Source: a virus. From it: a stretch of 59,728 nucleotides of DNA. The stretch covers positions 1-59,728 of IMG/VR virus record IMGVR_UViG_3300048925_000679, one strand, 5' to 3'. Of the stretch, positions 1 through 59,728 are shown piece by piece. The translations under genes were made by a program, and so were the position numbers. Under the pieces are notes generated by a model. The model saw only the letters and a list, made by a program, of their open reading frames with translations, was not told the DNA's origin and searched no databases. Position 1 is the stretch's first letter. Every line of letters begins with the position of its first letter.

Positions 1-1116
1 ATGGCAAGCATTTCGGAACGCACCAAGTCAGACGGCACGACCGCGTTCGTCGTCTCCTACCGCTTCGGCGGTAAAGGCTCCAAGCAGGGATCACTGGCCT
101 TCGACCACAAACCCACCGCGGAGGCGTTCAAAGCCGCCGTGAACGTCCACGGCGCCGAGAAAGCCCTCCGCATGCACGGGGTGGATCCGAGCCCGCGAGG
201 AACGAAATCAGCCCTCACCGTCGCCGGGTGGGTGCGTAAGCACATCGACCAACTGACCGGGGTGGAGCAGTACACCCTCGACAAGTACGAGTCCTATCTG
301 AAGAACGACATCATCCCCGCGTTCGGGGACATCCCGCTGTCGAGCCTGACTGAGGATGACATTGCGGCGTGGGTGAAGCACATGGAAACCCACGGAGGGC
401 GGGACCAGAAGGGTCATGCCCCGAAGACGATCCGCAACAAGTACGGGTTCCTAAGCGGCGCGTTGAACGCGGCCGTCCCGAAACACCTCCCCACCAACCC
501 GGCGGCGAATCGCCGGCTGCCCCGCGGGGACGCCGAAGACAACCACGACATGCGGATGCTGTCACGTGACGAATTCAGGGCCTTGCTAGATGCCACGGCG
601 GATCAGTGGAAGCCGATGGTGGAGTTCCTGGTGGCGTCAGGAACCCGGTGGGGGGAGGCGTCCGCGCTGCAACCCAAACACATCGACGTCCAGTCCGGGC
701 TGGTGATGATCCGACAAGCCTGGAAGTATTCGCCGACGAAGGGCTACACCCTCGGCCCCCCGAAGACGAAACGGTCCCGCCGCAACGTGGAGGTCCCGGT
801 CCGGTTGTTGGAGAAGTTGGATTTGTCGGGGGAGTTCGTGTTCACCAACCGTGACGGCGGCCCGGTCCGGTACCCACGGTTTTGGCGGCACGTCTGGAAT
901 CCCGCAGTGGAGAATTCTGGCCTGAACCCGCGGCCCACACCGCACGACCTACGCCACACCTACGCAAGTTGGCATCTCTCCGGGGGAACCCCGATCACGG
1001 TGGTATCCCGGCAGATGGGTCACGAGAACATTTCCATCACCGCCGACACCTACGCCGACATCGACCGCGTCTCCTCCCGCGCCGCCGCGGAGTTCATGGA
1101 CACCATGCTCGACTAA
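1..1116 (+). CDS. int: Tyrosine-family phage integrase
   Basis: Site-specific recombinase that would insert and, with a helper, excise the phage at its att site. The 371-residue length is normal for the family. Residues 12-50 look like an arm-type DNA-binding beta-sheet domain, 72-165 like the SAM-like core-binding domain, and 185-370 are the catalytic domain. Visible catalytic residues are R216 (GTRWGE), a Lys near 255-257, H315 and R318 (HDLRH), H341 (GHENI) and the nucleophile Y351. Nothing is missing, so it should be active. The gene begins at base 1, so its promoter and attP/attL lie outside the window. Its stop overlaps the stop of the convergent lipoprotein gene. Confidence 0.96.
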   Translation: MASISERTKSDGTTAFVVSYRFGGKGSKQGSLAFDHKPTAEAFKAAVNVHGAEKALRMHGVDPSPRGTKSALTVAGWVRKHIDQLTGVEQYTLDKYESYLKNDIIPAFGDIPLSSLTEDDIAAWVKHMETHGGRDQKGHAPKTIRNKYGFLSGALNAAVPKHLPTNPAANRRLPRGDAEDNHDMRMLSRDEFRALLDATADQWKPMVEFLVASGTRWGEASALQPKHIDVQSGLVMIRQAWKYSPTKGYTLGPPKTKRSRRNVEVPVRLLEKLDLSGEFVFTNRDGGPVRYPRFWRHVWNPAVENSGLNPRPTPHDLRHTYASWHLSGGTPITVVSRQMGHENISITADTYADIDRVSSRAAAEFMDTMLD

Positions 1117-1475
1117 CTGCCGTTGACGAACCGTGGGCATGCCACCGCCACAGCGGCGCGGATGAACTGGTCGGCCTGCACTGGTGTCCAGCTCTGCCGG
1201 GCCGACAACTCTTTAGCGACCGCGCTTATCGGGGTGCCCGGATGCAATATGAACGTCGTGCACACCATCTCCATCAGGTGACGTGCCTCCGGCTCAGCAA
1301 CGGGCACGCCATGTAGGAGGGACATCAGGTCGTCAGGGGGTTGTGTTGTCGTGGCGACGACAGTCGACGTCGGCGGTGCTGCGCTGGTAGTCGGTGTGGT
1401 GTTGACCTGGACTGTGCAACCCGATGTGAGAATGGCGGCCAGCACCGCTGATGCGATGAGGGCAAAGATTCTCAT
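1113..1475 (-). CDS. DUF732-like secreted lipoprotein
   Basis: A 120-residue predicted lipoprotein: a short basic start, a hydrophobic segment and the lipobox LTSGC (Cys about 20), then a Thr/Pro-rich linker and a small helical domain with two Cys. The overall pattern resembles mycobacterial DUF732 proteins, which are surface-located and of unknown role. The start is supported by a strong Shine-Dalgarno (GGAGGTGGGG) just upstream. It is transcribed leftward like the repressor and sits next to int, which suggests expression in the lysogen. Surface display or exclusion is inference only. Confidence 0.75.
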   Translation of the reverse strand: MRIFALIASAVLAAILTSGCTVQVNTTPTTSAAPPTSTVVATTTQPPDDLMSLLHGVPVAEPEARHLMEMVCTTFILHPGTPISAVAKELSARQSWTPVQADQFIRAAVAVACPRFVNGS

Positions 1476-1607: not shown

Positions 1608-1826
1608 ATGCCTACATGGCCTAACATCGCCTTGCTGACGGGCCTCATGTCAGACCCTCCAGACATCACTGAACTACGCCGAGAGCTACTCCTTCGGGTC
1701 GAAGCTCACCCAATCAGAACATGGTCAGCCAACCTGCTCGTCACCATCATCGCTGTCCTCGATCTTGTCGGGCCCGAACTCCCGCCCGAGCCCGGCAAGC
1801 GGGTCCACCTCCGGGTCGTCAGATGA
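1608..1826 (+). CDS. Possible small leaderless gene overlapping the repressor 3' end
   Basis: A 72-codon frame whose middle (about residues 14-60) looks like a helical, partly hydrophobic small protein. It overlaps the antisense 3' end of the repressor by 102 bases. There is no Shine-Dalgarno. A -10-like TATGAC ends 6 bases before the ATG, the same spacing seen at other lysogeny-type genes in this window. An internal ATG at 1647 is an alternative start. It could still be a chance frame opposite the acidic tail of the repressor. Confidence 0.3.
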   Translation: MPTWPNIALLTGLMSDPPDITELRRELLLRVEAHPIRTWSANLLVTIIAVLDLVGPELPPEPGKRVHLRVVR

Positions 1827-2207
1827 AGGCACCTCCTCGGCTTGTCCCGTTTGAGTCTGTGCTCCCGGGGCCGGGGCGTCAGTAGTAGATAAGGCATGTG
1901 CAGCTCCTTTCATTCGTCGCCGGATCTCGGCGAGTAGTTCGTCGTCGGCTAGGTCGGAAGCACTCCTGCCAATCTCGATAGCTTCTGCGGCGTCTGTCGC
2001 GTCTAGGTAGTTGGCCGCGACCAAGGCTTCAACAGCCGGCCGCCGCCAATTGCGAGCGATTGCTATGACGGATTCAACGCTGGGCCGCACCTTGCCTGTT
2101 TTCCATCGTGAAACGGTTCCCGCATCGACCTGAGCGATACGAGCGATTTCAGCTCCGGCCGCGTTGTCGGTCACTCGTACTAGGTAGTCCCAGAAGGTTT
2201 CAGGCAC
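1725..2207 (-). CDS. Immunity repressor (helix-turn-helix)
   Basis: A 160-residue DNA-binding protein. Residues 17-50 form an HTH whose recognition segment reads VDAGTVSRWKTGK; residues 60-105 are helical and probably dimerise; the C-terminus is acidic and low-complexity. It starts with GTG at 2207. It has no clear Shine-Dalgarno, but a TAACCT hexamer ends 6 bases upstream, suggesting a leaderless mRNA. It is divergent from the Cro-like gene at 2456, with palindromic operators between. This placement and the HTH make it the likely maintenance repressor of the early operon. Confidence 0.85.
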   Translation of the reverse strand: MPETFWDYLVRVTDNAAGAEIARIAQVDAGTVSRWKTGKVRPSVESVIAIARNWRRPAVEALVAANYLDATDAAEAIEIGRSASDLADDELLAEIRRRMKGAAHALSTTDAPAPGAQTQTGQAEEVPSSDDPEVDPLAGLGREFGPDKIEDSDDGDEQVG

Positions 2208-2213
2208 GGACTC

Positions 2214-2219
2214 AGGTTA
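2214..2219 (-). promoter_or_regulatory. Predicted -10 of the repressor promoter
   Basis: Read leftward this is TAACCT, which fits the TANNNT pattern of actinobacterial -10 elements, followed by 6 bases and then the GTG start at 2207. No convincing -35 is seen. Confidence 0.4.
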
Positions 2220-2324
2220 TTGCACGCATGCCACCCATTGGGGACCCATAACCGGCGTTGCGTCTATGCAAGCGCACTGGTCATCTAATTACACGCCTGC
2301 GATTCTGCAGCTAGGACGGCATAG

Positions 2325-2368: not shown

Positions 2369-2397
2369 TTGCATGCACGCCTAGGCGTGCGTACAGT
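2369..2397 (+). promoter_or_regulatory. Early rightward promoter with operator in its spacer
   Basis: TTGCAT (2369-2374) and TACAGT (2392-2397) are separated by exactly 17 bases, a good sigma-A-type promoter. The spacer contains the perfect palindrome GCACGCCTAGGCGTGC at 2375-2390. A protein bound there would block RNA polymerase directly. Related half-sites (CACGCCTGCG about 2292, GCACGC about 2222) lie upstream. It should drive the Cro-like gene and the long early operon. Confidence 0.75.
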
Positions 2398-25027: not shown

Positions 25028-25713
25028 CCGCAGCAGTCATCATCCCCTTCCGAGATCGCGGACGAGACCCACTCAGGCAAGCCAACCTCAACCGCACACT
25101 CGAACACTGGTCCGGATGGGACGTCCACGTCGTAGACGACGGACGCCAAGGCGACGCCCAATTCAACCGACACAAGGCCTACAACACAGGCGCCACCCTC
25201 ACAGACGCCGACATCCTCATCTACGCCGAATCAGACATGCTCATCGACTTCACCCAAATCCATCAAGCGATGCGACTAGCCGAAACCCACGGCCTCATCG
25301 TCCCCTTCACCGAACGACACGAACTCTCACCCGACTCCTCCGAACTCGTCCGAGAACACAAGATCAAGCCCCAAGACGGACGAGCAGACGTCATCAAACC
25401 CAAACCACGACGCATCGGCGCCATCAACGTCATCTCCCGCCAAACCCTCACCGCAGTAGGGCAATGGGACGAACAGTTCGAAGGATGCTGGTGGGACGAC
25501 CGATCCATGCACCTAGCATTCGACATCTGCGCCGGACCCACCCAATGGATCGACGGACCATCCTGGCACCTCTGGCACCTCCCCGGATACCAAGGCGCAC
25601 ACCTCACCGGAGCCGACAAACAAGCAACAGCACGCAACAAGCTCCGCTTCCGGCAGTACCAACGAGCACGCACACCGGACCAAATCCGGCGACTCACGCA
25701 CGGAATCAAGTAA
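25024..25713 (+). CDS. Family 2-like glycosyltransferase
   Basis: A 229-residue enzyme beginning AVIIPFRDRG, with HVVDDG at 35-40, AESDM (DxD-type) at 68-72 and FEGCWWDDRSMHLAF at about 152-166, the acceptor-side motif of GalNAc-transferase-like enzymes. ATG overlaps the preceding gene by 4 bases. It ends 8 bases inside the convergent regulator gene. The strand is markedly C/A-rich. Confidence 0.83.
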   Translation: MTAAVIIPFRDRGRDPLRQANLNRTLEHWSGWDVHVVDDGRQGDAQFNRHKAYNTGATLTDADILIYAESDMLIDFTQIHQAMRLAETHGLIVPFTERHELSPDSSELVREHKIKPQDGRADVIKPKPRRIGAINVISRQTLTAVGQWDEQFEGCWWDDRSMHLAFDICAGPTQWIDGPSWHLWHLPGYQGAHLTGADKQATARNKLRFRQYQRARTPDQIRRLTHGIK

Positions 25714-26209
25714 TGGTCTGGGCTAACCGAGCGCGGACTTCAGCCATCATCGTTCTTGCAATATGCCCACGCTTCTGAGTGGAAGCATCCGTCGGGCACC
25801 GCGCATCACGTTCTTCAACGAATGAACGTTGCCATAAAAGATCTGCCATATCCGCAAGCTCGTCACTGGTGATACCAAGCTTGCGGGCCACGCGATGCTC
25901 CTGCTCTGTGCCTACTTCTTTAACATCAGCAAGAATTACTGGTGATCCCAGCAGGAATGGCGCGAACTGATCATCGACTAACTCGTGCAGCGGGATTGGT
26001 CGTCCATGTACTTCGCCAATAGCTGCCGCGATCATGACGAGGTTGTCGATCGTAGGGGATGCTCGGCCAGCTTCGAGGTCGGCAATCCGGCCAGTGCCCC
26101 AGCGGGCGCCTTTGCGGCGTGCGGCAGTAGCCACTTGATCAAGAGTGGCCGTTCCGCGGAGCCGTCTGACATTTGCGCTGAAGGCAGCGTGCGCAGGCCG
26201 AGTATTCAT
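25706..26209 (-). CDS. XRE-family regulator with its own operator
   Basis: A 167-residue HTH protein. Residues 10-70 are the DNA-binding domain (VRRLRGTATLDQVATAARRKG, then IADLEAGRASPTIDNLVMIA). The rest is helical and acidic. The start at 26209 is chosen because a consensus TATAAT lies 7 bases upstream and the dyad covers it; a longer frame reaching 26587 lacks coding character. It converges on the glycosyltransferase gene with an 8-base overlap. It may repress itself and possibly the packaging region or another phage. Confidence 0.78.
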   Translation of the reverse strand: MNTRPAHAAFSANVRRLRGTATLDQVATAARRKGARWGTGRIADLEAGRASPTIDNLVMIAAAIGEVHGRPIPLHELVDDQFAPFLLGSPVILADVKEVGTEQEHRVARKLGITSDELADMADLLWQRSFVEERDARCPTDASTQKRGHIARTMMAEVRARLAQTIT

Positions 26210-26246
26210 GTCTGTAATTATACGGACATGAATTGTCCGCCTGCAA
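26204..26246 (-). promoter_or_regulatory. Autoregulated promoter of the XRE gene with operator dyad
   Basis: Leftward -10 TATAAT (26222-26217) and -35 TTGCAG (26246-26241), spacer 18. A 30-bp dyad covers 26204-26233: ATTCATGTCTGTA then ATTA then TACGGACATGAAT, 12 of 13 arm bases matching. A second, overlapping 6-bp dyad (CGGACA / TGTCCG) is at 26223-26239. The dyad covers the -10 and start codon, which points to autorepression. Confidence 0.8.
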
Positions 26247-50995: not shown

Positions 50996-51936
50996 TGCCA
51001 ACGATGTATGCCACGGCCGCGGAGTGGGCCGGGCTGAATCTGTTCGTCCCCGCCAACACGATTGGTGAGGAGTCCGATACCGGTAAGCGGAAGTCCGGTG
51101 GGACGGCAGGCAACTACTGGAATTCGTTGTCGTACACCAGCACCGCGTCGGGATCGTACAACTTCGACACGGTGCCCAGCGGTTCGGCGGTGGCCACTGC
51201 GGCGACTGCCACGACTTTGGCGGTTCGTGACTCGAACGCAAACCTCTCGGCGGATGGGTTCATTCCCTCTTCAACATCCACAGCGACGGCTGCGGGAACA
51301 ACAACGCTGACGGTGGATTCCACTGAGCTGCAGTTCTTCACCGGCACCACCACGCAGACAGTTCTGTTGCCGACAACGGGTGTGCCGGTGGGGCGACTGT
51401 TTGTCATCTTCAACACCTCCACCGGGTTGGTGACGGTTCAATCCTCGGGTGCGAACACCATTGGGTACGCCCCGGCTTCGGGTGGGATTCTGGTGGTGCA
51501 GGCGAACACCGCGACCCCGACAACGGCGGCGCATTGGACTGTCCGGTCGTATGCTGCGACTACCAGTTACACGTCTGGTGTGATCAGTGTGGCATTGCGG
51601 GACAACAACAACATCCTGTTCGCCCGGGCTCTGATTGCGGCGTCAACCACAACTGCCACCGCGGCCGGTACGACGACGTTGACTATCTCCAGCCCGACGA
51701 TTCAGATCTTCACGGGGTCGACGACGCAGACGATCACTTTGCCGACGACGACGGTGATTTTGGGGCATCGGATCACGTTCATCAACAAGTCGTCTGGTGC
51801 CCTGACGGTGAACTCTTCGGGTGGGAACTTGGTGGCGACGGTGGCCGGTGGGGCGACGGCCGAGGTGATGGCGAATCAGTCGACACCGACGACGGCCGCG
51901 CACTGGTCGGTGCTATCCAACGGTGGCACGGCTTAG
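50995..51936 (+). CDS. Tail fibre protein with two ~105-residue repeats
   Basis: Residues 75-184 and 199-307 repeat the same pattern: (L/V)A(V/L)RDxN, then STxTATAAGTTTLT, FTG(T/S)TTQT, and TPTTAAHW. The first 60 residues may attach it. Repeated beta domains of this sort act as fibre modules and receptor-binding spacers. ATG shares one base with the previous TGA. Confidence 0.75.
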   Translation: MPTMYATAAEWAGLNLFVPANTIGEESDTGKRKSGGTAGNYWNSLSYTSTASGSYNFDTVPSGSAVATAATATTLAVRDSNANLSADGFIPSSTSTATAAGTTTLTVDSTELQFFTGTTTQTVLLPTTGVPVGRLFVIFNTSTGLVTVQSSGANTIGYAPASGGILVVQANTATPTTAAHWTVRSYAATTSYTSGVISVALRDNNNILFARALIAASTTTATAAGTTTLTISSPTIQIFTGSTTQTITLPTTTVILGHRITFINKSSGALTVNSSGGNLVATVAGGATAEVMANQSTPTTAAHWSVLSNGGTA

Positions 51937-52724
51937 GTTGGGCAGTTGACCTGGGTGTGGCCGAACGGTGCCGCCGTCGTGCACGGCACAGGCGGACTCA
52001 GCTGATCAACAATCAGCGCCCCGATCTTCTCGGCAAGCCACACATGCCCCGCATCGTTCGGGTGAATCCCATCCTCCCCGATCAACTCCGGATGCCCGAC
52101 CAGCCAGCCATCAGTGATCGGATCGACCCACACCGCGTGGGCCTTGACCGCTTCAGTTCGGATGATGTCGCGGGCCTCCAACACCTCGGGTGGGGGTTCC
52201 CCGACAGGCCACGCAGGACCGATCACCAACAATGATGCAGTCGGGGCTTTCACTTTGATCGCCGCCAACGTGCCATCCACAGCAGCAGGTAGATCCTGCA
52301 GGTGCTCGGTGTTGTTGCGCGACCCGAATACCACCACCAGTCGGGAGTTCGACTTCACCACCTTCGGTACCTCCGCGGCGAAGTCGGTTCCGTTGTGTCC
52401 GGGTTTCCCGTACCCGGATGCACCCTCAGCGCCTTTGAGGATCGACACCGGATGGTCCGGGTTGAGTTGCCTCTCGACCAGTGCGGGCCATCCGTGATCG
52501 CCTTGCCCGCCCATCCCTGACCCGCTGGTGTAGGAGTCGCCGATCACCGACACGATCGCCGCCGGCACTTCCGGTGGGGGTGGGGTGTACCGGGATTCGT
52601 ATGCCGGTGGTGTCTTCGGGTACAGGAACATGGCTGTCCCGGCAATCACCGCGGTAACTGTGAGACCGGCGAGGACCAAGTATTTCAGCCGGGATGTCTC
52701 TGTGGAGTTACGTCGGTGGCCCAT
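51933..52724 (-). CDS. Membrane-anchored SGNH hydrolase, lysogenic-conversion candidate
   Basis: A 263-residue protein. Residues 13-35 are one membrane helix, 37-55 a Pro-rich linker, then an exported SGNH/GDSL esterase: VSVIGDSYTSG (Ser64), FGSRNN (134-137) and DGIHPNDAGH (Asp218, His221). It probably cleaves acyl esters on the cell envelope. It is leftward within a rightward late operon and has its own -10, so it could be expressed from the prophage. It ends by overlapping the fibre gene's stop. Confidence 0.84.
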   Translation of the reverse strand: MGHRRNSTETSRLKYLVLAGLTVTAVIAGTAMFLYPKTPPAYESRYTPPPPEVPAAIVSVIGDSYTSGSGMGGQGDHGWPALVERQLNPDHPVSILKGAEGASGYGKPGHNGTDFAAEVPKVVKSNSRLVVVFGSRNNTEHLQDLPAAVDGTLAAIKVKAPTASLLVIGPAWPVGEPPPEVLEARDIIRTEAVKAHAVWVDPITDGWLVGHPELIGEDGIHPNDAGHVWLAEKIGALIVDQLSPPVPCTTAAPFGHTQVNCPT

Positions 52725-52732
52725 GGTCGCGG

Positions 52733-52738
52733 ATCGTA
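52733..52738 (-). promoter_or_regulatory. Predicted -10 of the SGNH hydrolase gene
   Basis: Leftward TACGAT ends 8 bases before the ATG, with no Shine-Dalgarno between, predicting a leaderless mRNA. The -35 region is not consensus. Confidence 0.45.
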
Positions 52739-52801
52739 ACCCGGGCGTGCGGGGGCTGGAATCCGCCGATCGTATGACAAGTCCTCAACGTGGAGGTCCC
52801 T

Positions 52802-52924
52802 GTGAAAACACTCCTGATTTACGCCCTCACCGCACTCGCCGCGCTGGGTGTGGAAGCCGGGCTCGCCTACCTGTGGCTGATCGGTGTGGCCCCCCAGTTT
52901 GAGAAACAACTCTCCCACCACTAG
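52802..52924 (+). CDS. Small membrane protein (40 aa)
   Basis: GTG start after TGGAGG. Residues 3-31 are hydrophobic (one helix) and the tail is polar. It overlaps the end of the convergent RHH gene by 4 bases. Function unknown; a small lysis-associated protein is possible. Confidence 0.55.
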   Translation: MKTLLIYALTALAALGVEAGLAYLWLIGVAPQFEKQLSHH

Positions 52925-53088
52925 CGCTGGTTGCGTTTCCGTCGCCCGGCTTTGACGTAACGCTCCAAACCTGCCCGGACAGCATCCGTGACCGTCTCAC
53001 CGTTCTCGGCCGCGATCTCCTGGGCTTCTAGGTACAGCTCGTCGGGGATGCGGAAGGATCGTAGTGGGGTGCGGGGCTGATTAGGCAC
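52921..53088 (-). CDS. Ribbon-helix-helix DNA-binding protein (55 aa)
   Basis: The pattern LRSFRIPDELYLEAQEIAAE followed by NGETVTDAVRAGLERYV is a clear RHH/CopG fold (beta strand, then two helices). The basic end (KAGRRKRNQR) supports DNA binding. GTG start overlaps the end of the upstream gene by 8 bases, so the two are one leftward operon. It may bind the direct repeats upstream of that operon. Confidence 0.75.
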   Translation of the reverse strand: MPNQPRTPLRSFRIPDELYLEAQEIAAENGETVTDAVRAGLERYVKAGRRKRNQR

Positions 53089-53407
53089 GCTGGTTTTCGA
53101 AAATTGCCAGTGCGTGACGGAGTCCGGCCAGATAACTGTCGGCCCTCAAGTGCTCCGGGGTGTCGATCTCAGTTGACATGAGTGCTTCAAACGCGGCGCG
53201 TTCATCATGCTGAAGAGCGGTGTACCAGAGTCCCTCATCAAGGGGTTCTGGTGGAGCGGAGCCGAGGCGGGCCTCCGCAGTGTCTGCCGAACCTTCGACG
53301 GCCCGGAGCCGCATCGAGAAGGTGTGCCATTGGTCCGGTTCGATGCGCTGGGCGAGCCAATGCGCGAATGTGGCGAACTCAGGCGAGTTGTAAACGTCAA
53401 TAGACAT
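53081..53407 (-). CDS. Unknown protein, first gene of the RHH operon (108 aa)
   Basis: A mostly helical, acidic protein with no motif I recognise. The start at 53407 is chosen because GAGG lies upstream and the direct repeats are left free; a start at 53455 would bury them. With the RHH gene it resembles a toxin-antitoxin layout in reverse order, but no toxin fold is seen. It is convergent to the small gene at 52802 and divergent from 53479. Confidence 0.6.
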   Translation of the reverse strand: MSIDVYNSPEFATFAHWLAQRIEPDQWHTFSMRLRAVEGSADTAEARLGSAPPEPLDEGLWYTALQHDERAAFEALMSTEIDTPEHLRADSYLAGLRHALAIFENQRA

Positions 53408-53425
53408 ACCGCCAAGCCTACCTCG

Positions 53426-53463
53426 TGTCATAACACCAAGCAAGCCACATGTCATAACACCAA
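53426..53463 (-). promoter_or_regulatory. Two direct repeats upstream of the RHH operon
   Basis: TGTCATAACACCAA occurs at 53426-53439 and again at 53450-53463, 24 bases apart. Read leftward, TTGGTGTTATGACA may contain a -10-like TATGAC. The repeats lie just upstream of the leftward gene starting at 53407 and before the rightward gene at 53479, so they could be operators for the RHH protein. Confidence 0.6.
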
Positions 53464-53478
53464 ATCACTAGGAGCCCC

Positions 53479-53625
53479 GTGCACGTCCTCACCTTTCACG
53501 GTGTCCCGCAGGTCCGTTCCGAACGGTGGCAACGGTTATGCCTCGCCATGGCCGCCTACCCCGCCGACGAGCAGGAGCACCTGCATATCCAGTCCGGCAC
53601 GGCCAACGTCCCAATCCTGCGCTGA
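53479..53625 (+). CDS. Small protein (48 aa)
   Basis: GTG start after TAGGAG. No motif recognised; contains HxHIQSG-type residues. Rightward restart of the late genes after the leftward island. Confidence 0.45.
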   Translation: MHVLTFHGVPQVRSERWQRLCLAMAAYPADEQEHLHIQSGTANVPILR

Positions 53626-53635
53626 AAGGCCCAAT

Positions 53636-53962
53636 GTGAAGAAGCTCCTCACCGACCTGATCAACGCCGCCATCGACAACATCCTCACCCGCATCAATCT
53701 TGAGAAGCGCCTAGATGATCTGCGGCAGGACGCCAAGGCAGAACTCGATGAACTGCGGGACAAGGCATTCGCCGAACTAGAGGAGACCCGCGACAAAGCG
53801 TTGGCGATGGTGAAGGAATCCCTCCCGGAGATGGCGGCGGCCGTCAGTCAGGCGGCAGTCACCTCCGTGTTCGACCACACCCAGATAGACGAGACCACCG
53901 ACCGTGTGACGGATGTCTTCACCAACATCCTCGACCGGCTGCCATTCGGGTTCGGCAAATGA
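53636..53962 (+). CDS. Coiled-coil protein before the lysins (108 aa)
   Basis: GTG start after AAAGG. Residues 5-70 form one long charged helix (RLDDLRQDAKAELDELRDKA) with a repeated DKA unit, followed by Ala-rich and hydrophobic helices. No membrane helix is obvious. Probably a minor structural or lysis-linked protein. Confidence 0.65.
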   Translation: MKKLLTDLINAAIDNILTRINLEKRLDDLRQDAKAELDELRDKAFAELEETRDKALAMVKESLPEMAAAVSQAAVTSVFDHTQIDETTDRVTDVFTNILDRLPFGFGK

Positions 53963-55230
53963 GTTTCGTCTGGAAAGCGGCGCAACGCCTCAAGACTCCA
54001 GAACAGGTCATGGCCGTCATCATCCAGACGGTTGACGAACTGAACATGCCGGACAAGCGGGGTGCTGCGATCTGCGCCGGTATGTGCGTCGCGCAAGAGT
54101 CCGACTTCTGGTGCCCATGGAACGCCGCAGATCCTGAATCGAAGAATTATCCCTACGATTCGCAATCCGACGACGGCCGATCGGTGGGCTACTACCAGCA
54201 GCAAAAGGGCCCCCGTGGGGAACTGTGGTGGGGGCCGACGTCGCAGGAAATGGACCTCAAACTGTCCACCCGCGAGTTCCTTACCCGGTTGAAGAAGAAC
54301 GGCTACAACGCATCGAATGCGCAGGCCGCCAACGACTCCGTCCAGGCAGTGCAGCGTTCCGGTGTCCCGCAGGCGTACGCGAAGCACTGGGGACGAATCA
54401 ACACCCTCTACGACAGCGTCCAGAGTGGCGCAGTACAGGAGCCCGCAGTGGGAGTATCAGGCGACCCGATCTGGCTGGAGGACGTACTACGTCCCGCACT
54501 CGGAGACCGGCTCAAAACCTTACCCGGATGGCAGGACTCCGGCGTCGGCGGAACCATGGGCCAAATCTGGGGGATGATCTGGCACCACACCGGCAACGGT
54601 GCGGCCACCGCCCAATCGATCCGAGACGGACGCCCAGACCTCGCAGGCCCGTTGTCCCAGTTGCACATCGCGCAGGACGGCACTGTCACCATCGTCGCTG
54701 TCGGGCCGTGTAATCACGCCGGCAAGGGATCCTGGGATGGGCTGCCCACTGATAACGCGAACGATCGCACCATCGGCATCGAGTGCGCGTGGCCGCGGGA
54801 CACCAGCATCACGGAAGCCACTCAGACGCGGGAGCGTTGGCCGGACGCGCAGATCATTTCGATGCGGGACACTGCAGCGGCGTTGTCGCTGCATCTTGGC
54901 GTGGATGCGTCGCACAACATTTCACACAGTGAGTGGGCACGATTCGGGCCTGCGGGGTTTAGGCAGGGCAAGTGGGATCCGGGGAACCTGGACATGAATT
55001 GGTTCCGCGGCGAGATCGCCAAGGACATGCGTGGCGAGTTTGATAAACCGTCTACGCCTCCGGTGGTGACACCACCCGTCGGCCCGACTCCGATCCCGCG
55101 CGGTGACGCGGATCTTCAGCTCACCACACGGTTCAACTGCCTCGGCGGACAAACCCTCGTCGAAGCTCTCGCGGAAGTGCGGGACAAGGTGCTCGGCACC
55201 AATGACCGTAAGAAGACAGGAGCGATCTGA
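53959..55230 (+). CDS. lysA: Lysin A: lysozyme-like plus amidase endolysin
   Basis: 423 residues. The N-terminal 1-150 resemble a lysozyme/GH23-like lytic domain (CVAQESDFW with Glu47, then VGYYQQQ). Residues 195-350 are a PGRP-type amidase: IWHHTG (209-211), CNHAG (H253), IGIECAWPR, H323 and D340 (KWDPG). The C-terminal 60 residues, after a Pro-rich linker, are a possible cell-wall-binding end. It cuts peptidoglycan at the end of infection. Confidence 0.92.
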   Translation: MSFVWKAAQRLKTPEQVMAVIIQTVDELNMPDKRGAAICAGMCVAQESDFWCPWNAADPESKNYPYDSQSDDGRSVGYYQQQKGPRGELWWGPTSQEMDLKLSTREFLTRLKKNGYNASNAQAANDSVQAVQRSGVPQAYAKHWGRINTLYDSVQSGAVQEPAVGVSGDPIWLEDVLRPALGDRLKTLPGWQDSGVGGTMGQIWGMIWHHTGNGAATAQSIRDGRPDLAGPLSQLHIAQDGTVTIVAVGPCNHAGKGSWDGLPTDNANDRTIGIECAWPRDTSITEATQTRERWPDAQIISMRDTAAALSLHLGVDASHNISHSEWARFGPAGFRQGKWDPGNLDMNWFRGEIAKDMRGEFDKPSTPPVVTPPVGPTPIPRGDADLQLTTRFNCLGGQTLVEALAEVRDKVLGTNDRKKTGAI

Positions 55231-56240
55231 TGCGCATTGGAGATACCTACGTCGGGCTGGGTGAGGGTGATGAGTCCGATGAGGTTGGCAAGATCATCGA
55301 CTACGTCCGCCGCATGTACACCCCAGCCCGCAATACCGTCGCACCCGGACGCTTGTTCACACCAGCACTGACGTCTGAGATCAAACGTGAGCAGGAAGTG
55401 TTTGTCTCACAAGGAAAACTGAAGGGCGGGGAGTTCATCCCCGGCGTCGTGAACCTCGCATGGAAATACGCTTCCGGGTACCTGAAGAAGGACAAGCTGC
55501 TTCCGCTGTACTTCTCTGCGGAGGGGCACATGTCAGACATGAACGTCGGCCCGGTGGCGTGGGTGGGGCAGGTGCTTCATAACGAAGGCCGGGCGCTGCA
55601 CTTCCCAACGTTCTACGTCAACAACGCAATTCCGTTCAAGACCAGGACTGGCATCACTGAACTCGCGCGCCGCGTAGGGCAGACGGTCCAAGACAACGGC
55701 GTCAAATTCCCTGAGGGAACCCCGTGGGCGCTCGGCGGATTCTCCGAGGGTGGGCTACTGATCTCGAAGTTCTACCTCGAATACCTGATGCCCGGGAAGC
55801 CACTCAACTGGCGATTGAAGGATCTGCGCGGTGTCATCTGCTGCGGGTCGCCATACCGGGAGAAGGGTGTCGTCGCCGAGTGGATCCCCGACCCGCCGGC
55901 ATCTGATCGCCAAGGCATCTCCGATGTCCGACTCACTGATACCCCGTGGTGGTGGAAGGAAGTCGCCCGCCATGGCGACTTGTACACCGACAACGAATCA
56001 TCCGGGGATCGGGCGTTGTACAAGACGATGTGCTACAAGATCATCGCCGAAGGCAGCTTCTCCGGCGGTAAGGCGGGATTCCTGGCCCGCGTCATGGACC
56101 TTCTCACGCCGTCCGATGACTTAATCCCGGTGGCTCTGGCCATCTTCGACGGTTTGAAGTTCCTCACCAATATGTCTCCTCATGGGATCTACAACATGGA
56201 TCCGGCCGTGCAGTTCCTGCGTGAACGCCTCGCAGCCTGA
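55230..56240 (+). CDS. lysB: Lysin B: mycolyl-arabinogalactan esterase
   Basis: 336 residues with an alpha/beta-hydrolase core. The nucleophile elbow GFSEG has Ser172, an Asp near 250 (HGDLYTDN) and a His near 318 (SPHGIYN) complete the triad. Lysin B detaches the mycolate outer layer, so the host must have mycolic acids. ATG shares one base with the lysin A stop. Confidence 0.94.
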   Translation: MRIGDTYVGLGEGDESDEVGKIIDYVRRMYTPARNTVAPGRLFTPALTSEIKREQEVFVSQGKLKGGEFIPGVVNLAWKYASGYLKKDKLLPLYFSAEGHMSDMNVGPVAWVGQVLHNEGRALHFPTFYVNNAIPFKTRTGITELARRVGQTVQDNGVKFPEGTPWALGGFSEGGLLISKFYLEYLMPGKPLNWRLKDLRGVICCGSPYREKGVVAEWIPDPPASDRQGISDVRLTDTPWWWKEVARHGDLYTDNESSGDRALYKTMCYKIIAEGSFSGGKAGFLARVMDLLTPSDDLIPVALAIFDGLKFLTNMSPHGIYNMDPAVQFLRERLAA

Positions 56241-56266
56241 AAGTTTCAATCGAAAGGGAATTCATC

Positions 56267-56491
56267 ATGCAGGTACCAGCGCTCGTCAAGGATCTCGTCG
56301 AGCGGGCGGTGAAGACCGCGGCCCAGACCGCACTCACTGTGCTCGGCGCTGACCAGCTCAACCTTTTGAATGTCGACTGGGAAACCGTCGTCGGCCTGTC
56401 TGGTGGCGCCGCGCTGCTGTCCGTGTTGACGTCGCTCGCATCGTCTCCGCGTGTCGGCACACTGTCGCCCGCGTCCGCGGTGAAGCAGTAA
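56267..56491 (+). CDS. Holin (r1t-type)
   Basis: 74 residues starting with a helix that includes DLVERAVKTAAQTAL and a later hydrophobic helix (VVGLSGGAALLSVLTSLA). This is the actinophage r1t holin pattern. It would form the membrane lesion that times lysis. ATG after GAAAGGG. Confidence 0.85.
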   Translation: MQVPALVKDLVERAVKTAAQTALTVLGADQLNLLNVDWETVVGLSGGAALLSVLTSLASSPRVGTLSPASAVKQ

Positions 56492-56569
56492 GAGACGGGG
56501 CCGCCGCCTGCCTCCACAGCGCGGCGACCCCTAACCCCACCACTTGAAACCACCAAGCAGGGGGCTGGC

Positions 56570-56691
56570 GTGGATGCTATCCACCCAGCCGCAGCTGCGT
56601 TCACAAAACCCGCAGCGAGGGCCCAGAAAGGACGGACAGGGTGACCACAACCACGGAGCTGAACGCTCCCCGCCCGACGTACCGCTGTTAG
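56570..56691 (+). other. Short leader-like frames between holin and next membrane gene
   Basis: A 24-codon frame (56570-56644) after GGGGG and a 16-codon frame (56641-56691) overlap by 4 and end exactly one base before the ATG at 56692. They may couple translation. Apart from them the 200 bases after the holin hold no gene. Confidence 0.25.
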
Positions 56692-56925
56692 ATGGCGAAG
56701 TCTGACGACGGCTGGAGCAAATGGGCCCGCAACGGGCGCCTCTCCACGATCGTCTGGTCCATCACCTTTGTCGCATGGCTGTCCTTCAAAGTCGCCAAAA
56801 TCCCCCTCGAAGGACTCGACACGGTGTTTGTGATCATGTCCGGAGCATGGGTGACCAACCTTGGCATCTCGACGGTGAAACCTGCCGGCGATAAGCCGGA
56901 GGGGCAGAAGGCCGATGATGACTGA
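56692..56925 (+). CDS. Membrane protein in lysis module (77 aa)
   Basis: Two hydrophobic stretches (residues 19-33 and 43-60) and a basic/acidic tail, so one or two membrane helices. It follows the holin and may be a second holin, antiholin or accessory. It overlaps the next gene by 11 bases. Confidence 0.65.
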   Translation: MAKSDDGWSKWARNGRLSTIVWSITFVAWLSFKVAKIPLEGLDTVFVIMSGAWVTNLGISTVKPAGDKPEGQKADDD

Positions 56926-57406
56926 TTGGCTTCTGGACTTGTTCACCATCGAACACCTGGCCTACTTCATGCTGGGTGTAGTCACCGCCGGGGGGTGGCA
57001 TCTGATCAAAGCTCGGATTCAGCGGAACACTGTGGTGATTCATTGGAAGTACATTGGGGTTCCGTTGGCTTTGTGCATCATCGTGTATGTGGCTGCGCAG
57101 AATCAGCAGAACGCCAACTGTGTCCGCGAGTTCAATCAGGTGTTGCGGGTCCGGTCGGGGATCTCCATGGAGAATGATCAGCTGTCGCGGACGGAACGGA
57201 CAGCGTTCGCCGATTGGCTGCGGGTGCTGCTGAATCCACCGCCGGAGATCGCCGGGTTGGCTGATGATGATCCGCGGTACCAGAAGTGGGGCCGCGATGT
57301 CACCGAGCACTACTACACGCAGATTCGGGCGATTGAGGATCAGCAGATCGCCAACGACAAGATCCGCGCGAACAACCCTCTGCCAGAGCCGACATGCGGA
57401 CGCTGA
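56915..57406 (+). CDS. Two-pass membrane protein in lysis module (163 aa)
   Basis: Residues 5-26 and 47-61 are membrane helices; the C-terminal 100 residues are polar and helical. Proteins of this kind are usual after actinophage holins, and could act as spanin-like or holin-associated partners. The ATG at 56915 or 56918 is possible. Confidence 0.65.
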   Translation: MMTDWLLDLFTIEHLAYFMLGVVTAGGWHLIKARIQRNTVVIHWKYIGVPLALCIIVYVAAQNQQNANCVREFNQVLRVRSGISMENDQLSRTERTAFADWLRVLLNPPPEIAGLADDDPRYQKWGRDVTEHYYTQIRAIEDQQIANDKIRANNPLPEPTCGR

Positions 57407-57585
57407 GGTATGCGGTGGTGGTGACGGTGGTCATCGCGATGGCACCGCCGCATCTGATCACGAAGTGCTCGGATCAGGGGTATCGGCAGACGCATTTGGC
57501 TGAGTGTAATTTGTCTGGGCCGCCGGGTCATGGTGGGGTTGGCGGCCGGCGGGGCTGGTTGGGGTTGGGTATTGGGCCGCTGTAG
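57394..57585 (+). CDS. Small exported or membrane protein (63 aa)
   Basis: A hydrophobic signal-like start (RYAVVVTVVIAMA), then a short Gly-rich end with two Cys. Overlaps the upstream gene by 13 bases. Function unknown. Confidence 0.55.
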   Translation: MRTLRYAVVVTVVIAMAPPHLITKCSDQGYRQTHLAECNLSGPPGHGGVGGRRGWLGLGIGPL

Positions 57586-57620
57586 GTCGTGCCTTTACCG
57601 CTTATCCCGTTTACGCGGGT

Positions 57621-57626
57621 GACAAT
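57621..57626 (+). promoter_or_regulatory. Predicted -10 for the 57633 gene
   Basis: GACAAT ends 6 bases before the GTG at 57633. A short hairpin-capable segment (CCCG...CGGG, 57607-57620) lies just upstream. No Shine-Dalgarno is seen, so a leaderless mRNA is likely. Confidence 0.5.
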
Positions 57627-57632
57627 AGTGTC

Positions 57633-57944
57633 GTGATCCGTTTGCGCACCGGAGACCGCGCCATCATCGTGGGCGCTGTAGCGATAGCGGTGTATGAGCG
57701 AGTGATCGCCGACGACGCGGATCTCATCTCGTCACGAGTAGCCGCCTATAAACGAAACCACCCCGTGTTGACGATGGCCATCGTGTGGATCACCGCGGCG
57801 CATTTAACGGAACTGCTTCACCCGTCTGTGGATCCGTACCATCAGGCAGTCAAATACTTCCGACGACATGTCGGGGGTGGAGCGCTAGACTTAGGCGGGT
57901 CCGCTGGGTGCGGTAACACCCAAGCAGACCCTAACCCCAACTGA
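57633..57944 (+). CDS. Small membrane protein (103 aa)
   Basis: Hydrophobic segments at about 10-25 and 47-63, then the pattern AAHLTELLHPSVDPYHQAVKYF, seen in small actinophage membrane proteins. Its last third overlaps a strong hairpin. Probably expressed from its own promoter; role unknown. Confidence 0.6.
   Translation: MIRLRTGDRAIIVGAVAIAVYERVIADDADLISSRVAAYKRNHPVLTMAIVWITAAHLTELLHPSVDPYHQAVKYFRRHVGGGALDLGGSAGCGNTQADPNPN
57897..57931 (+). terminator. Strong hairpin at end of the late region
   Basis: GGGTCCGCTGGGTG (57897-57910) pairs with CACCCAAGCAGACCC (57917-57931) apart from one bulge and one mismatch, around CGGTAA. No T-run follows, but the stem is long. It may terminate late transcription. 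Confidence 0.5.
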
Positions 57945-57970
57945 ATCCTAGAAACCCAGAAGAGGCTGAC

Positions 57971-58255
57971 ATGAAGACTAGTACCCGCACATCGGTAGCC
58001 ACGGATTTGGTGGCCAACGCCGAGACCATACTGATGGGCGTGTCGCGCGGCCCGTGGAAGATGGGCAATCGCGCCCACCCTGACGTGGTGCACTCCCCGA
58101 ATGGGTGTCTATGGCACCCGGAGCGCGGCGAGATCAACAACGTCAACGACGGTCTATTCATCGCCGCCGCCCGCACCCTCGTCCCCGAGATGGTCGAAGA
58201 GATCAAGCGCCTGTACGCCGAGAATCAGCGCCTCGTCGAAAAACTGGACAAGTGA
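57971..58255 (+). CDS. Ead/Ea22-like protein (94 aa), paralogue of the 18147 gene
   Basis: Residues 16-80 share the pattern with the 18147 protein: A..IL.G.SRGPW, then N.V.DG.FIAAARTLVPEMVEEIKRL. It is shorter. ATG after AGAGG. The pair is at opposite ends of the phage. Confidence 0.6.
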   Translation: MKTSTRTSVATDLVANAETILMGVSRGPWKMGNRAHPDVVHSPNGCLWHPERGEINNVNDGLFIAAARTLVPEMVEEIKRLYAENQRLVEKLDK

Positions 58256-58476
58256 TGCGGTACCTCTACGACCGCAGCCCTGGCGCTAAGCGGCGCGTGA
58301 TGCACCTCTGCGGCTACAGCCCGACCACCGGGGAGCCAACCATGCAGCCCATCTGTGGCCGCGTCAACGGCGTCCAGTTCAACACCACATGCAACTTCCC
58401 GCTGGGACGTCCAGTGTGCAAACGATGCATGGGTGCGATGCTGGATCGCGTAGCCATCCGCACCGCCAGCATTTGA
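58255..58476 (+). CDS. Cys-rich small protein (73 aa)
   Basis: Cys at 19, 34, 46, 54 and 57 (CGYSP, CGRVNG, CNFP, CKRCMG) fits a zinc-binding fold. TGATG overlap with the upstream gene. Function unknown. Confidence 0.6.
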   Translation: MRYLYDRSPGAKRRVMHLCGYSPTTGEPTMQPICGRVNGVQFNTTCNFPLGRPVCKRCMGAMLDRVAIRTASI

Positions 58477-58546
58477 CGTTGACCATCTCATTGTCGTTGG
58501 TGCAGCGCACCCTTTCGGTCACCGACGACATGTCGGAGTGCAGGAA

Positions 58547-58552
58547 TAGACT
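58547..58552 (+). promoter_or_regulatory. Predicted -10 for the 58559 gene
   Basis: TAGACT ends 6 bases before ATG 58559; no Shine-Dalgarno. A CCGAC/GTCGG dyad lies just upstream at about 58522-58536. Confidence 0.5.
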
Positions 58553-58558
58553 GAACGG

Positions 58559-58864
58559 ATGGACTTCAGCGGACCTCACTTAGTGCCGGGCTCACAGATG
58601 GCTGTGCAGGTCGGTGACGAACTCATTGAGGGCACCATCGAAAGCGTCCACTACACCTCCGCTAAACCTGAGATACGGCAGCATCCAACAGGGTGGCGGC
58701 GAGTACTCCGGTCACTGACACCCATCCGGTGGCGCAAACCGCTACCTATTGTCCGGCCATATCAGCCCGCTGGCATGGAAGTCATCACGGTCAGCGAGAG
58801 GGAACGTCGAGCTAAACGAGTCGCGGAAAACATGCGTGCTGCCCTGCGCGATCTTGGGCTCTAG
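58559..58864 (+). CDS. Right-end protein (101 aa)
   Basis: A small N-terminal beta-barrel-like segment (MAVQVGDELIEGTIESVH) and a basic helical C-terminus (RERRAKRVAENMRAALRDL). Possibly nucleic-acid binding. Leaderless by the promoter spacing. Function unknown. Confidence 0.6.
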   Translation: MDFSGPHLVPGSQMAVQVGDELIEGTIESVHYTSAKPEIRQHPTGWRRVLRSLTPIRWRKPLPIVRPYQPAGMEVITVSERERRAKRVAENMRAALRDLGL

Positions 58865-58944
58865 CGCCGCCGTCGCCACAGCCAGACGGCTAACCCCACC
58901 AAAACAGCTATCCCGATCGGCCCTACTGGGCTTCGTTTCACCAT
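58861..58944 (-). CDS. Tiny membrane protein (27 aa)
   Basis: Leftward frame with one hydrophobic helix (IGIAVLVGLAVWLW) bounded by a basic start and an RRRR end, a credible single-pass micro-protein. Its stop overlaps the stop of the 58559 gene. No Shine-Dalgarno. Function unknown. Confidence 0.4.
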   Translation of the reverse strand: MVKRSPVGPIGIAVLVGLAVWLWRRRR

Positions 58945-59025
58945 CTACTACCAGTACCCATAAGGGCGAGGTGTTGGACAGGGTAGACAACTACTTGTGA
59001 TGTGAATGCTGCTGGACTGTCATTG

Positions 59026-59064
59026 GGGCCGCTTCGACCTACGGGTCGGAGCGGCCCGATTTTT
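59026..59064 (+). terminator. Strong intrinsic terminator
   Basis: GGGCCGCT T CGACC (59026-59039) pairs with GGTCG G AGCGGCCC (59044-59057) around TACG, 14 pairs with one wobble, then GATTTTTG. It ends rightward transcription from the 58559 gene. Confidence 0.85.
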
Positions 59065-59082
59065 GCGTAGGGCTCCAGTGGG

Positions 59083-59241
59083 TCACGATTCAGTTGCCTC
59101 GGTCGTTGTGCATCGTCCAGATTCGGCCCAGCGGCAAATGCGGCTTCCGTCAGAATCGAGTTTGTTGGTGAGGGCGGCCTGACGCCCGCAGGACGGGCAC
59201 TGTCGAGCCCTTGCGACGCGTTTGCCGGCGGCGTGGTTCAT
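59083..59241 (-). CDS. Small zinc-ribbon protein (52 aa)
   Basis: Leftward frame with CPSCG (residues 15-19), then C36 and C44 (ICRWAESGRC), a zinc-ribbon pattern; the N-terminus is basic (AAGKRVARARQC). ATG 59241, with an in-frame GTG two codons upstream. No clear Shine-Dalgarno. Real by motif, but short. Confidence 0.5.
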   Translation of the reverse strand: MNHAAGKRVARARQCPSCGRQAALTNKLDSDGSRICRWAESGRCTTTEATES

Positions 59242-59290
59242 CCACACGGCCGTATCGGTTTCCAGCCCGGGCGGTGTCGGTGTACAGGCA

Positions 59291-59296
59291 TAGAAT
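59291..59296 (+). promoter_or_regulatory. Predicted -10 for the 59303 gene
   Basis: TAGAAT ends 6 bases before ATG 59303 with no Shine-Dalgarno, the same layout as at 58559 and 57633. Confidence 0.55.
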
Positions 59297-59302
59297 CAGC
59301 GG

Positions 59303-59728
59303 ATGGCCACGTTCCATCTGATGCGTGAAGAAACCTACGAAGTGCCGCGCTACAACCACTGGTGGCAGGGCTGGCCCAGCCGCATCCGCGGACTCATCGT
59401 CACCGAAATCCAATGGGACGCCAACGACGAGCAAGGCATCTACGAGACCGGGAGAACCCACCGTTTCTGCGGCTGGCAGGAACTACTTCGCCCAACCAAC
59501 CACCTCACCCGACTCGTCCCGACCGGCGATACCGCCGAAGCCGAAGGCCGGATGGAGAACGCCGGCCTCGTCTTCGGCCCTATCGCGTTCGGTCCCGTGT
59601 CGACACAGTTCCGCTGCGGGGCAGTGCGGATGACCGACCAGAACGGGAAAGAGTTGGGGTCGTTCAGTGCTTCGGCGGAACTCTACGAAGGCGACACCTT
59701 ACATGTAACTCCGCAGATTTACATGTAA
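59303..59728 (+). CDS. Right-end protein next to the attachment site (141 aa)
   Basis: Beta-rich, aromatic N-terminus (YNHWWQGWPSRIRG) and a C-terminal part ending LYEGDTLHVTPQIYM. No family recognised. It is the last gene before the window edge and, in prophage order, next to attR. Its own leaderless-type promoter suggests expression in the lysogen. Confidence 0.65.
   Translation: MATFHLMREETYEVPRYNHWWQGWPSRIRGLIVTEIQWDANDEQGIYETGRTHRFCGWQELLRPTNHLTRLVPTGDTAEAEGRMENAGLVFGPIAFGPVSTQFRCGAVRMTDQNGKELGSFSASAELYEGDTLHVTPQIYM

What the first reader, a model, noticed from the sequence alone, without database searches (positions are those of the whole stretch)
52733..59296. Shared leaderless promoter design for lysogeny-type genes
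A -10 hexamer ends 6-8 bases before the start codon, without Shine-Dalgarno, at 2207 (TAACCT), 26209 (TATAAT), 52724 (TACGAT), 57633 (GACAAT), 58559 (TAGACT) and 59303 (TAGAAT). Most other genes have a Shine-Dalgarno or overlap. This marks a set of genes likely expressed from the prophage using host sigma factor and leaderless translation.
Basis: partly seen in the sequence, partly recalled or inferred. Interest (0 to 1): 0.7.

Follow-up and report, generated by a model that had tools for sequence, protein, structure and literature searches.

The report
Leaderless promoters of prophage side genes
In this mycobacterial-type prophage, a handful of stand-alone genes, including the gene that keeps the virus dormant, seem to be transcribed from the first base of the gene itself by the host's own polymerase, an arrangement already known in mycobacteria and their viruses; expression in the dormant state was not tested.

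Summary
Five of the six listed sites carry a TANNNT -10 ending 6-8 bases before a credible start codon with no Shine-Dalgarno. 57633 (GACAAT) does not fit. In the window, 6 of 86 starts carry the signature against 0.29 expected. It is best supported for the immunity repressor (2207 minus): 10 of 12 homologous phage repressors keep TANNNT 6-7 bases before the start (one after correcting its start), next to a palindrome like TTGCGTGCACGCAA; 0 of 12 divergent cro-side starts do. 58559 and 59303 share a duplicated promoter (22 of 31 bases). In six relatives, excluding the window, the signature is on 9 of 46 minority-strand starts versus 4 of 471 forward starts (p = 9e-8).

It is not one design: beyond the -10 position, each unit has its own flanking elements. 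Homologs of the 52724, 57633 and 58559 genes are leadered or mid-operon elsewhere. A likely lysogeny gene at 1475 minus has a strong Shine-Dalgarno. Expression in the lysogen is inferred. Leaderless promoters for repressors, prophage genes and reversed genes in late operons are already described, so this is a new member of a known kind.

The parts
1725..2207 (-). Immunity repressor (HTH), GTG start, leaderless
   Evidence: phrog_19579 E=1e-31; homologous to annotated immunity repressors of Mycobacterium and Gordonia phages
2214..2219 (-). -10 TAACCT of the repressor promoter, 6 b before GTG
   Evidence: same position conserved in 10 of 12 homologs
2258..2271 (.). degenerate operator TTGCGTCTATGCAA in the repressor-cro region
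   Evidence: 3 mismatches to TTGCGTGCACGCAA; total number of matches in the window is not above chance
2369..2382 (.). degenerate operator TTGCATGCACGCCT, at the rightward early promoter (TTGCAT, 17 b, TACAGT)
25706..26209 (-). HTH regulator between the early and late regions, leaderless ATG
   Evidence: HTH_3 weak match, 22.0 bits against cut-off 23
26217..26222 (-). -10 TATAAT, 7 b before ATG; -35-like TTGCAG at 26241-26246, spacer 18
26224..26238 (.). perfect inverted repeat GGACA-n5-TGTCC within the promoter spacer, putative autoregulatory operator
   Evidence: only copy in the window, though chance gives about 3 with one mismatch
51933..52724 (-). SGNH/GDSL hydrolase gene, reversed inside the late region
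   Evidence: PF13472 E=1.6e-17
52733..52738 (-). -10 candidate TACGAT, 8 b before ATG; a second TACGAT ends 44 b upstream
   Evidence: weak, homologs not leaderless
   Evidence: no homologs
52921..53088 (-). 55-aa Arc/ribbon-helix-helix repressor, overlapping the end of the 108-aa gene
   Evidence: phrog_6506 E=1.6e-15
53415..53420 (-). -10 TAGGCT, 7 b before ATG; -35-like TTGCTT at 53438-53443, spacer 17
53426..53461 (-). two exact direct repeats GGTGTTATGACA (53426-53437, 53450-53461), putative operator of the RHH protein
   Evidence: 2 found, 0.24 expected
57633..57944 (+). DUF7427 gene; claimed -10 GACAAT at 57621-57626 not supported
57860..57891 (+). CCGACGACATGTCGG then TAGACT 11 b on: putative leadered promoter of gene 57971
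58522..58552 (+). CCGACGACATGTCGG then TAGACT 10 b on: leaderless promoter of gene 58559
58559..58864 (+). 101-aa gene, phrog_7097, unknown function
   Evidence: homologs in Omegavirus phages
59026..59057 (+). strong intrinsic terminator between the two right-end genes
59291..59296 (+). -10 TAGAAT, 6 b before ATG 59303, in a promoter duplicated from or with that of 58559
   Evidence: 22 of 31 upstream bases identical, the top pair of all starts compared
59303..59728 (+). 141-aa orphan gene at the end of the record
   Evidence: no homolog

Best explanation
The record is a Mycobacterium-type prophage cut at gene ends. Most of its genes lie in long polycistronic operons read with Shine-Dalgarno sites or by translational coupling. 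A few genes outside those operons (the immunity repressor, a second HTH regulator, one or two reversed units within the late region, and two right-end genes) have their own promoter, whose SigA-type TANNNT -10 ends 6-8 b before ATG or GTG. Transcription would then start at the first base of the codon and give a leaderless mRNA, which mycobacteria translate efficiently. Such units can be read by the host polymerase without phage activators, hence in the lysogen, each with its own local elements. Shown: the sequence signature, its excess over chance, its conservation for the repressor, its minority-strand enrichment in relatives, and the duplicated promoter of 58559/59303. Inferred: transcription start, leaderless translation, operator function, and activity in the lysogen.
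For: Excess of the signature in the window, 6 of 86 against 0.29. Repressor homologs: 9 of 12 at the annotated start plus CCUG48898T-2 after start correction, against 0 of 12 cro-side starts in the same loci. Palindrome TTGCGTGCACGCAA confined to the repressor-cro region of relatives, with one chance hit in the reversed control. Promoter duplication at 58559/59303. Minority-strand enrichment without the window: 9 of 46 against 4 of 471, p = 9e-8; with it 11 of 51 against 5 of 552. Mycobacteria initiate efficiently at ATG/GTG at +1 with the usual -10 (PMC4633059). Most genes of M. abscessus prophages are silent in lysogens except the repressor and a few own-promoter loci, often near attachment junctions (PMC8092301).
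Against: No transcript data. -35 matches are poor at every site. Homologs of the genes at 57633 and 58559 lie inside operons; those of 52724 are leadered and the one homolog of 26209 has an SD-like sequence. Two repressor homologs (Bernal13, Mendokysei) have an AAGGA site instead. The gene at 1475(-), likely also read in the lysogen, has a strong SD. Homologous repressors in the relatives are not independent counts.
Confidence: 0.75

Rival explanations
1. Leaderless starts are real but mark only independent transcription units with a host-type promoter, not lysogeny. Any single gene outside an operon would look like this, and some are read in lytic growth.
For: Leaderless transcripts are common in mycobacteria (PMC4633059). 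Corndog leaderless promoters drive divergent genes about 5 kb from the left end and a reversed gene in the structural operon (PMC4351075). Flanking elements differ between sites in the window.
Against: The repressor is by definition a lysogeny gene. Minority-strand and integrase-side concentration in temperate relatives. Adephagia gp90 is both predicted leaderless and lysogenically expressed (PMC11373665).
Confidence: 0.4
2. Chance: TANNNT is a loose motif, and some of the six are coincidences in AT-richer intergenic DNA, notably 52724 and 57633.
For: GACAAT fails the consensus. 52724 lies in 72% GC with a second TACGAT 36 b further up and no -35. Homologs of both are not leaderless.
Against: The total excess is far beyond shuffled sequence, and the repressor and the 58559/59303 pair have independent support.
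Confidence: 0.2
3. The 58559 and 59303 upstream sequences are a phage-specific start-associated motif acting in translation or under a phage factor, like the SAS of cluster K, rather than a host promoter.
For: The upstream sequences are 22 of 31 identical right up to the ATG. Cluster K SAS also sit within 3-9 b of start codons (PMC11373665).
Against: No enrichment of the SAS consensus in the window. The conserved part contains TAGA(C/A)T at leaderless spacing. Only two start-linked copies.
Confidence: 0.1

Closest known systems
Leaderless transcription units of mycobacteria (Shell et al. 2015, PMC4633059)
   Same: ATG or GTG at the inferred +1, the same -10 as leadered genes, no SD
   Different: Here in a prophage, and start sites are inferred, not mapped
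Adephagia P90 (cluster K; PMC11373665)
   Same: Lysogenically expressed phage gene with a predicted leaderless transcript from a SigA-like promoter
   Different: A HicAB antitoxin; no homolog of it was identified among the genes here
Corndog PL1, PR2 and PL2 (cluster O; PMC4351075)
   Same: PL2 is a leaderless promoter for a reversed gene inside the structural operon, like 53407 and 52724 here
   Different: PL1 and PR2 serve divergent genes near the left end, not an integrase-repressor region
Repressor-cro region of cluster F and Gordonia phages (Spartacus, Jabbawokkie, Yoshi, Malisha, Spooky)
   Same: Divergent repressor and cro-like gene; TANNNT 6-7 b before the repressor start next to a palindrome
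   Different: Here the palindrome is degenerate and the -10 is TAACCT
BPs/Giles repressor promoter Prep (from memory, not checked here)
   Same: Leaderless repressor transcript in mycobacteriophages
   Different: Repressors of another group with integration-dependent immunity

Membership tests
SigA-type leaderless transcription unit | TANNNT -10 ending about 6-8 b before the start codon | tested here: met
   2207, 26209, 52724, 53407, 58559, 59303; not met at 57633
SigA-type leaderless transcription unit | ATG or GTG start and no Shine-Dalgarno | tested here: met
   All RTG; no 4-nt SD match at 3-12 b except 53407, where GAGGT overlaps the -10 region
SigA-type leaderless transcription unit | mapped transcript 5' end at the first base of the codon | not testable with these tools
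   needs RNA
Lysogenically expressed prophage gene | transcribed in the lysogen while lytic operons are silent | not testable with these tools
   no RNA data for this prophage
Lysogenically expressed prophage gene | function or position typical of lysogeny (repressor, integrase side, prophage ends, minority strand) | tested here: inconclusive
   met for 2207, and by position for 53407, 58559 and 59303; attachment sites lie outside the record
Cluster F / Gordonia phage immunity repressor region | homologous repressor with a conserved leaderless promoter next to a TTGCG..CGCAA palindrome | tested here: met
   palindrome degenerate in the window
Cluster K start-associated sequence (SAS) | GGGATAGGAGCCC with at most 2 mismatches, 3-9 b before starts | tested here: not met
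   no match with 2 or fewer mismatches; 11 with 3 against 18.7 expected

The most novel reading that the evidence does not exclude
The promoters at 57886, 58547 and 59291 are a small dedicated module at the right end of the prophage, two copies preceded by the exact 15-mer CCGACGACATGTCGG, under a regulator separate from the immunity repressor, so that right-end cargo genes captured from lytic operons of other phages are switched together in the lysogen.
Probability: 0.2. Interest if true: 0.45.

Novelty: new member of a known kind. Interest (0 to 1): 0.3.

Why it matters
A TANNNT 6-8 b before an RTG start without an SD, on the minority strand or at a prophage end, looks like a useful sequence-only predictor of genes that an actinobacterial prophage can express while dormant. 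It also corrects start codons: the deposited repressor start of CCUG48898T-2 lies on its own promoter. The idea is not new, so the gain is a tested rule and a short list of candidate prophage-expressed genes here (53407, 58559, 59303).

Tried and rejected
57633 as a leaderless gene: rejected (no TANNNT; homologs in cluster E phages lie in an operon). One shared operator for all sites: rejected; GGACA-n5-TGTCC and GGTGTTATGACA each occur at one promoter only. SAS of cluster K: rejected. Conservation of the 58559/59303 promoter elsewhere: no match in viral contigs. Relatives of 59303 and 53407: none in the collections searched. Fold of the 59303 product: pLDDT 36, unusable. Defence families: no convincing hit. 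Counting all in-frame RTG starts near gene starts rather than one chosen start per gene drowned the signal: 23 hits against 34 for a mirror motif; the strand test on chosen starts is the one relied on.

Full report
What the record is. The 59,728-base window is a whole virus record. It begins on the ATG of a tyrosine integrase gene (71% identical to cluster F phage integrases) and ends on the stop of an orphan gene, so it looks like a provirus trimmed at gene ends. Integrase, repressor, cro-like gene and antirepressor are on the left; lysin A, lysin B and holin lie at 53.9-56.5 kb.

The observation. All six hexamers exist. Five fit TANNNT; GACAAT at 57633 does not. A seventh case, 53407(-), was missed. 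Over 86 starts the signature (TANNNT ending 6-8 b upstream) occurs six times against 0.29 expected from other offsets; among isolated starts without an SD it occurs 5 of 14 times against 0.41 in shuffles. Three of these starts were taken or moved from the claim, but homologs support 2207 and 58559 and an HTH match supports 26209.

The repressor. The 2207(-) gene is homologous to annotated immunity repressors of Mycobacterium and Gordonia phages. In 9 of 12 homologs TANNNT lies 6-7 b before the annotated start. In a tenth (CCUG48898T-2) the deposited TTG start falls on the sequence TTGCGTGCACGCAATACAAT itself, and the next ATG, which restores the family N-terminus MSDWWDYVVRV, is 7 b after TACAAT. 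The two exceptions carry AAGGA. The divergent cro-side starts of the same loci show it 0 of 12 times. In cluster F phages the palindrome TTGCGTGCACGCAA occurs only in the repressor-cro region. So for the repressor the design is conserved and probably autoregulated (inference).

The other units. 26209(-): consensus TATAAT with -35-like TTGCAG and a perfect inverted repeat in the spacer; its only phage homolog (Ghobes) has an SD-like sequence. 53407(-): a 108-aa orphan followed by an overlapping Arc-like 55-aa repressor, with two exact 12-base direct repeats just upstream of the -10, inside the late region on the opposite strand. 52724(-): a GDSL hydrolase; weak -10, a second TACGAT further up, homologs leadered. 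58559 and 59303: their upstream 31 bases are 22 of 31 identical, the top of all pairs compared. The 15-mer CCGACGACATGTCGG occurs exactly twice, each 10-11 b before a TAGACT. A strong terminator separates the two genes. Homologs of the 58559 gene sit inside operons of Omegavirus phages, so its private promoter here looks acquired.

Does it mark lysogeny genes? In six relatives, without the window and with near-identical starts removed, the signature is at 9 of 46 minority-strand starts and 4 of 471 forward starts (odds ratio 28, p = 9e-8). Without repressors it is 5 of 42 against 4 of 471 (odds ratio 16, p = 3e-4). Hits include an excisionase gene and the HTH gene beside the repressor. Of the four forward hits, one is the integrase and one lies next to the polymorphic-toxin locus at the right end of CCUG48898T-2. 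The Spartacus integrase has it at its annotated start. It is therefore a real tendency, but not a definition: the 1475(-) lipoprotein gene next to the integrase has AGGAGGTG, and Corndog uses leaderless promoters elsewhere.

Known background. Leaderless RTG initiation is common in mycobacteria and needs only RTG at +1 (PMC4633059). A leaderless transcript is predicted for a lysogenically expressed antitoxin in Adephagia (PMC11373665). M. abscessus prophages are mostly silent except the repressor and loci with their own promoters (PMC8092301). The finding fits this and adds a tested enrichment.

Limits. No RNA data. The gene caller is home-made. Repressors in the comparison are related to each other. 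Attachment sites and host flanks are outside the record.

Noticed in passing
52921-53461 (-): Orphan 108-aa gene overlapping an Arc/RHH repressor gene, with two exact direct repeats GGTGTTATGACA at its promoter, inside the late region on the opposite strand; the layout resembles an autoregulated toxin-antitoxin or moron unit.
   Followed up: partly
L016 665-700 (OQ417972.1, gene 7): Deposited immunity-repressor start (TTG) of phage CCUG48898T-2 lies on the operator/-10 itself; the ATG 27 b downstream fits the family N-terminus and the leaderless spacing.
   Followed up: yes
1550-1590: Inverted repeat ATTTCGTTGCG..CGCAACGAAAT upstream of the DUF732 lipoprotein gene 1113-1475(-), which has a strong SD.
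   Followed up: no
57860-57874 and 58522-58536: Exact 15-mer CCGACGACATGTCGG twice, each followed after 10-11 b by TAGACT; candidate operator of a right-end module.
   Followed up: partly
59026-59057: Strong intrinsic terminator (14-bp stem, T run) between the last two right-end genes.
   Followed up: no
52802-52924: Possible 40-aa membrane peptide gene with a GGAGGT Shine-Dalgarno, divergent from the reversed hydrolase gene.
   Followed up: no
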